Of a stretch of 64,000 nt of DNA, positions 25,750 through 25,765 are shown piece by piece (the stretch's first letter is position 1; each line of letters begins with the position of its first letter). The translations under genes and the position numbers were made by a program. Origin of the DNA: an uncultured beta proteobacterium (GTDB lineage: Bacteria > Pseudomonadota > Gammaproteobacteria > Burkholderiales > Burkholderiaceae_C); the NCBI GenBank assembly GCA_903876735.1, contig CAIRAW010000002.1:52154-116153 (forward strand), read 5' to 3'. The notes beneath the pieces are model-generated. The model had not been told where the DNA came from, did not search any database, and saw nothing but the letters and a program-made list of their open reading frames with translations.

Positions 25750-25765
25750 TGGCACGCGCTATGCG
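25750..25765 (+). promoter_or_regulatory. Sigma54 (-24/-12) promoter of gvpA operon
   Basis: TGGCACGCGCTATGCG: TGGCACG -24 box, TGC at -12, canonical GG-GC spacing; ~85 nt upstream of the gvpA ATG. Confidence 0.75.

What the first reader, a model, noticed from the sequence alone, without database searches (positions are those of the whole stretch)
25750..25765. Second sigma54 promoter directly upstream of gvpA
Seen: TGGCACGCGCTATGCG, canonical spacing, in the only sizeable gap between regulatory and structural halves. It shares the TGGCA...CTAT core with the 17786 promoter. Inference: a closed circuit in which the encoded sigma54 activator drives structural gvp genes, giving all-or-none control of an expensive organelle.
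Basis: partly seen in the sequence, partly recalled or inferred. Interest (0 to 1): 0.76.

Follow-up and report, generated by a model that had tools for sequence, protein, structure and literature searches.

The report
Sigma54 promoter driving gas-vesicle genes
The DNA just before the main gas-vesicle gene carries a genuine "sigma54" on-switch that every gas-vesicle relative checked preserves, with a matching enhancer also found before the regulator's own genes, so the bacterium appears to run its flotation organelle from one self-reinforcing switch; the basic switch is already known from Serratia, while the self-reinforcing wiring looks like a new variant.

Summary
TGGCACGCGCTATGCG lies at 25750-25765, 101 bp before the gvpA ATG (25851), with canonical -24/-12 spacing. 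It is more than chance: in all 11 same-genus gvpA upstream regions long enough to show it, TGGCA and GC are invariant at fixed spacing while the flanks diverge, and a conserved 5' leader begins at the predicted start (~25776). 26 of 39 related gvpA genes carry such a site on the sense strand, 0 of 39 on the antisense strand. A conserved tandem palindrome (CC-N6-RTGG-N8-CCATRG; window 25597-25625) lies ~150 bp upstream. The same motif precedes the 17786 promoter of the regulatory operon. In the whole genome, enhancer plus sigma54 site co-occur at only three places: these two and one small gene on another contig. Its "TGGCA...CTAT core" argument is wrong (CTAT is out of register), and "all-or-none" is untested. 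A sigma54 promoter with a mapped start before gvpA1, dependent on GvrA and rpoN, is already published for Serratia 39006. What differs here: the regulatory operon also has sigma54 plus enhancer (3 of 6 relatives), implying auto-activation; in Serratia it has a sigma70 promoter.

The parts
25750..25765 (+). sigma54 -24/-12 promoter of gvpA (P2), TGGCACGCGCTATGCG; predicted transcript start about 25775-25777
25597..25625 (+). tandem palindromic upstream activating sequence (UAS) of P2, CGCCACACCTGTGGCGCAGATTCCCTAGC, overlapping the last codons of the REC gene; somewhat degenerate in this genome
   Evidence: conserved in 11 of 11 relatives at 130-173 bp before the -24 box; rank 5 genome-wide with a matrix built without the window; DNA-level, since it lies after the stop codon in 5 of 8 genomes
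25776..25850 (+). conserved 5' leader of the gvpA transcript; 5'-terminal ACGAAG/CUUCGU hairpin and possible pseudoknot ACCCC/GGGGU
   Evidence: no Rfam family; pairs are almost invariant, so there is no covariation support
25851..26069 (+). gvpA, major gas vesicle shell protein, 72 aa
   Evidence: PF00741
26081..26125 (+). long hairpin after gvpA (attenuator or 3' stabiliser); weak T-tract
   Evidence: -38 kcal/mol, z -7.2; 8 pairs with changes on both sides across 11 relatives
17786..17801 (+). sigma54 promoter of the regulatory operon (P1), TGGCATAGCTATTGCT
   Evidence: rank 20 genome-wide; conserved in 3 of 6 genomes compared
17661..17689 (+). tandem palindromic UAS of P1, TTCCATAGTCATGGCGCTCATTCCATGGT
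   Evidence: rank 1 genome-wide with a matrix built without the window; conserved in L094 and L099
17871..18473 (+). 200-aa protein of unknown function, first gene of the regulatory operon
   Evidence: no Pfam or NCBIfam hit; more than 1400 homologues
18470..20035 (+). gvrA-like sigma54 activator (receiver, AAA+ with GSFTGA loop, Fis-type HTH)
   Evidence: PF00072, PF00158, PF02954; translation
20085..20702 (+). Hsp20-like protein (gvpH position)
20639..22855 (+). CDC48-family AAA ATPase
22852..23691 (+). gvpF/L
   Evidence: PF06386
23688..25211 (+). soluble PAS histidine kinase (gvrB position)
   Evidence: PF02518, PF00512, PAS
25211..25624 (+). stand-alone receiver protein (gvrC position)
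   Evidence: PF00072
26216..36317 (+). structural half downstream of gvpA: 312-aa gvpC-like, gvpN, gvpF, gvpG, ArsA-like ATPase, gvpA paralogue, gvpK, second gvpA paralogue, then a GGDEF-EAL protein

Best explanation
The element is a real sigma54 promoter for gvpA and, by read-through past a downstream hairpin, for the structural gvp genes. The GvrA-like activator encoded at 18470-20032, presumably controlled by the adjacent PAS kinase and receiver protein, binds a tandem palindrome about 150 bp upstream (25597-25625) and remodels RNA polymerase-sigma54 at 25750, starting transcription near 25776. The same palindrome and a sigma54 promoter precede the regulator's own operon (17661 and 17786), so the activator most likely also drives its own operon. 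Shown by sequence: both promoters, the shared enhancer, its near-uniqueness in the genome, conservation in relatives, the start of a conserved leader at the predicted +1, and presence of rpoN and the activator. Inferred: that GvrA is the protein that binds the palindrome, the true start site, activation in vivo, the signal, and the feedback.
For: TGGCA and GC invariant at fixed spacing in 11 of 11 relatives while flanks diverge, with the conserved leader beginning at the predicted +1. Enhancer in 11 of 11. A matrix built without the window puts the P1 enhancer 1st and the P2 enhancer 5th in 7.8 million positions. Enhancer plus sigma54 at the right distance occurs at only three places in the genome, and 10 column-shuffled matrices gave two marginal hits in all. 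Across phyla 26 of 39 MAK-type gvpA genes have a sense-strand sigma54 site and 0 of 39 an antisense one; other gvpA genes 8 of 77 and 1 of 77. Long loci with the site all have a GvrA-like gene within 10 kb (5 of 5, against 5 of 24 without the site; p = 0.002). rpoN present. In Serratia 39006 the gvpA1 start maps below a sigma54 box, needs GvrA, and an rpoN mutant loses gvpA1 transcription (PMC4982088; PMC11778176).
Against: No expression data. The -12 box is not ideal (ATGCG). The P2 enhancer in this genome is weaker than in most relatives (CCACACCTGTGG). No strong terminator separates the two operons, so P1 read-through could contribute. Nothing ties GvrA biochemically to the palindrome; another activator could bind it. 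A strictly sigma54-dependent, self-activated regulator needs some other source of first activator.
Confidence: 0.85

Rival explanations
1. The 25750 site is functional, but gvpA is mainly transcribed by read-through from the regulatory operon (P1), so that the second promoter only boosts it.
For: Same strand, 226-bp gap, no convincing terminator between them; both promoters carry the same enhancer.
Against: A separate promoter, enhancer and leader are conserved in all relatives, including three whose regulatory operon lacks P1. In Serratia the two operons do not overlap in transcription (PMC4982088), although operon order differs there.
Confidence: 0.1
2. A different sigma54 activator, not the cluster's GvrA, binds the shared palindrome; GvrA acts elsewhere or only through it.
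For: No binding data; the genome search does not identify the binder.
Against: The palindrome sits at the gvp promoters of every gas-vesicle relative and in the genome almost only there; sigma54 gvpA sites co-occur with a nearby gvrA-like gene; GvrA is required for gvpA1 transcription in Serratia.
Confidence: 0.08
3. gvpA is transcribed from a sigma70 promoter and the TGGCA...GC match is fortuitous.
For: One sigma70-like match in the region, but inside gvpA at 25900.
Against: No sigma70 pair upstream of gvpA reaches the scan threshold, and no -35/-10 pair is conserved in the alignment, whereas the sigma54 boxes are invariant.
Confidence: 0.03
4. The conserved block from the promoter to the ATG is kept mainly as an RNA element (leader), and conservation of TGGCA is incidental.
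For: The leader is highly conserved and occurs once in the genome.
Against: TGGCA...GC lies upstream of the leader, with variable sequence between its boxes and above it, and recurs in other phyla without the leader.
Confidence: 0.02

Closest known systems
Serratia sp. ATCC 39006 gvpA1 promoter and GvrA/GvrB/GvrC regulators
   Same: sigma54 -24/-12 box upstream of gvpA1 with a start mapped by 5' RACE; NtrC-like GvrA required; rpoN insertion abolishes gas vesicles; [quoted passage not shown]
   Different: Serratia's gvrA operon starts from a sigma70 promoter; here it has a sigma54 promoter with the same enhancer as gvpA. Operon order is inverted here (regulatory half first, same strand), and a 200-aa gene precedes gvrA. 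No enhancer sequence was reported in the text read. In Serratia SmaR quorum sensing represses gvpA1; no counterpart was looked for here.
NtrC/AtoC-type sigma54 enhancer systems
   Same: receiver-AAA+-Fis activator with GSFTGA loop, tandem dyad enhancer 100-200 bp upstream, -24/-12 promoter
   Different: palindrome CCAT-N4-ATGG specific to gvp loci; protein scores well below the NtrC and AtoC equivalog cut-offs
Cyanobacterial gvpA promoters
   Same: precede gvpA
   Different: no sigma54-like site above threshold in the cyanobacterial loci here; cyanobacteria lack sigma54 (own knowledge)

Membership tests
sigma54-dependent promoter | GG and GC at -24/-12 in the canonical spacing, near TGGCAC-N5-TTGC | tested here: met
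sigma54-dependent promoter | conserved in orthologous positions | tested here: met
   11 of 11 in genus; 26 of 39 across phyla
sigma54-dependent promoter | rpoN in the genome | tested here: met
   one sigma54 gene
sigma54-dependent promoter | transcription start about 12 bp below the GC and loss in an rpoN mutant | not testable with these tools
   no RNA data; the conserved leader starts at the predicted position
GvrA-type gas vesicle regulatory circuit (Serratia) | NtrC-like activator with AAA+ and Fis HTH in the gvp cluster | tested here: met
GvrA-type gas vesicle regulatory circuit (Serratia) | regulatory operon order gvrA, gvpH, gvpZ, gvpF2/F3, gvrB, gvrC | tested here: inconclusive
   activator, Hsp20-like, CDC48 ATPase, GvpF, kinase, receiver in that order in window and relatives, consistent with the order in PMC4982088; the Serratia protein sequences themselves were not compared and only one gvpF is present
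GvrA-type gas vesicle regulatory circuit (Serratia) | sigma54 promoter before gvpA | tested here: met
GvrA-type gas vesicle regulatory circuit (Serratia) | sigma70 promoter before the gvrA operon | tested here: not met
   window has a sigma54 site plus UAS there and no good sigma70 match
enhancer (UAS) of a bacterial enhancer-binding protein | tandem dyad-symmetric sites about 80-200 bp upstream, shared by co-regulated promoters | tested here: met
enhancer (UAS) of a bacterial enhancer-binding protein | bound by the activator | not testable with these tools
   needs EMSA or footprinting

The most novel reading that the evidence does not exclude
The gas-vesicle activator in this lineage drives itself as well as gvpA through one enhancer, giving a positive-feedback (possibly bistable) flotation switch, and has recruited a third promoter elsewhere in the genome, before a small protein family enriched in gas-vesicle genomes that may be an unrecognised accessory of the organelle or of its regulation. 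The gvpA message in addition carries a conserved 5' structured leader and 3' hairpin that would set its high yield.
Probability: 0.4. Interest if true: 0.6.

Novelty: new variant of a known kind. Interest (0 to 1): 0.45.

Why it matters
It turns a single-sequence guess into a testable regulatory circuit for an organelle of interest in ecology and imaging. It gives a candidate enhancer motif for the GvrA-type activator (CCAT-N4-ATGG-N8-CCATRG), shows that sigma54-type promoters before gvpA extend over several phyla, and reveals two wirings of the regulator operon (sigma54 self-activated against apparently sigma70-driven) within one genus, a natural comparison for asking what feedback adds.

Tried and rejected
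Loose consensus counting in the window gives no signal, so it was replaced by weighted scoring and conservation. A sigma70 promoter for gvpA was rejected. Rfam finds no known leader family. The leader pseudoknot (ACGAAG/CUUCGU crossing ACCCC/GGGGU) is compatible with 99% of cells but shows no covariation, and the single-sequence fold is no better than shuffles, so it is left as unproven. A viral-contig hit to the leader pattern (L229) has no gvp genes and is taken as chance. Conservation of the enhancer through the receiver protein's C-terminus was rejected. Other high enhancer hits (C81, C73, C29, C12) have no sigma54 site at the proper distance. The sigma54 weights are hand-set from the published consensus as I remember it, not fitted. 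The identity of the organism was not established (one GvrA homologue, 61% identical, is labelled Rhodoferax).

Full report
Observation. It has GG and GC at the sigma54 spacing, with two deviations in the -12 element. Matching a consensus with three mismatches is worthless in this window (419 found, 395 expected). With a weighted score the site ranks 142nd of about 7.8 million positions in its genome, the 17786 site 20th, and it stands alone in the 226-bp gap.

Phylogenetic footprint. Twelve of 90 same-genus genomes have gvpA. Aligning upstream regions shows TGGCA...GC invariant in all 11 sequences that reach it, at 93-101 bp from the ATG, with the flanks diverged. Below it, the conserved leader begins at the position where a sigma54 transcript should start (about 25776). 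In wider searches 26 of 39 MAK-type gvpA genes, from Desulfobacterota, Acidobacteriota, Chromatiaceae and others, have a sense-strand site scoring at least 14, and none has one on the antisense strand. Cyanobacterial and other gvpA genes mostly lack it (8 of 77 against 1 of 77). Among long loci, every one with the site has a GvrA-like activator within 10 kb.

Enhancer. The same alignment exposes a second conserved block 130-173 bp above the -24 box: CC-N6-RTGG-N8-CC-N2-RG, always with the same 8-bp internal spacing. It is kept whether it falls inside the receiver gene (window, L092, L099) or after its stop codon (L094, L096, L097, L098, L100), so the constraint is on DNA. The same motif lies 125 bp above the 17786 promoter (window, L094, L099). 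A matrix built from relatives only, excluding the window, scores the two window copies 1st and 5th in the whole genome. Requiring a sigma54 site 90-200 bp downstream leaves three promoters: P1, P2 and one on contig C75. Ten column-shuffled matrices gave only two marginal hits in all.

Circuit. The regulatory operon (17871-25624) encodes a receiver-AAA+-Fis activator with a GSFTGA loop, an Hsp20-like protein, a CDC48-type ATPase, GvpF, a soluble PAS kinase and a stand-alone receiver. Relatives keep this order. The simplest reading is that the activator binds the palindrome and opens both promoters. That makes the activator self-activating here. Three other genomes (L092, L096, L100) lack P1 and its enhancer and show sigma70-like sequences instead, as in Serratia, so the loop is a lineage variant. 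All-or-none behaviour does not follow from sequence, and a purely self-activated sigma54 operon would need another source of first activator.

Message anatomy. The leader (25776-25850) has an almost invariant ACGAAG/CUUCGU hairpin starting two or three bases from the predicted 5' end and a possible ACCCC/GGGGU pseudoknot. Pairs are too invariant to show covariation; a divergent metagenome copy (L103) keeps the hairpin and the CCCC/GGGG core. A strong hairpin (26081-26125) follows gvpA (z -7.2) with compensatory changes. Inference: they stabilise a discrete gvpA message and attenuate the accessory genes.

Known ground. In Serratia 39006 the gvpA1 start was mapped by 5' RACE below a sigma54 box, GvrA, GvrB and GvrC are each needed for full gvpA1 transcription, the gvrA operon has a sigma70 promoter, and no read-through joins the operons (PMC4982088). 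An rpoN insertion abolishes gas vesicles and lowers gvpA1 but not gvrA transcription (Hill 2021, as cited in PMC11778176). The gvpA promoter is therefore a new member of a known kind; the self-activating wiring and the defined enhancer make the whole a new variant.

Noticed in passing
genome contig C75:102276-101793, minus strand (L182 and L214): A third promoter with a perfect enhancer match and a sigma54 site (TGGCACGGTTGCTGCG) 156 bp downstream precedes an 89-aa protein. Its family occurs in 8 of 12 gas-vesicle genomes of the genus but only 3 of 78 others (Fisher 9e-7); relatives' copies lack the enhancer.
   Followed up: partly
25776-25850: gvpA leader conserved at near-invariant level across the genus, found nowhere else in the genome and in no Rfam family; possible 5'-terminal hairpin and pseudoknot.
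   Followed up: partly
26081-26125: Long covarying hairpin directly after gvpA, probably attenuator or 3' stabiliser.
   Followed up: yes
17871-18473: First gene of the regulatory operon encodes a widespread 200-aa protein (more than 1400 homologues) without any Pfam or NCBIfam family.
   Followed up: partly
L041, L042, L043, L044, L048 upstream of gvpA: Bacteroidota gvpA genes share a different conserved leader (roughly AGGTAAACCGTCCCTC...GCACGG), some with weak sigma54-like TGG...TTTGTA sites.
   Followed up: no
33456-36317: A Cache-PAS-GGDEF-EAL protein follows the gvp cluster on the same strand; possible c-di-GMP link to flotation.
   Followed up: no
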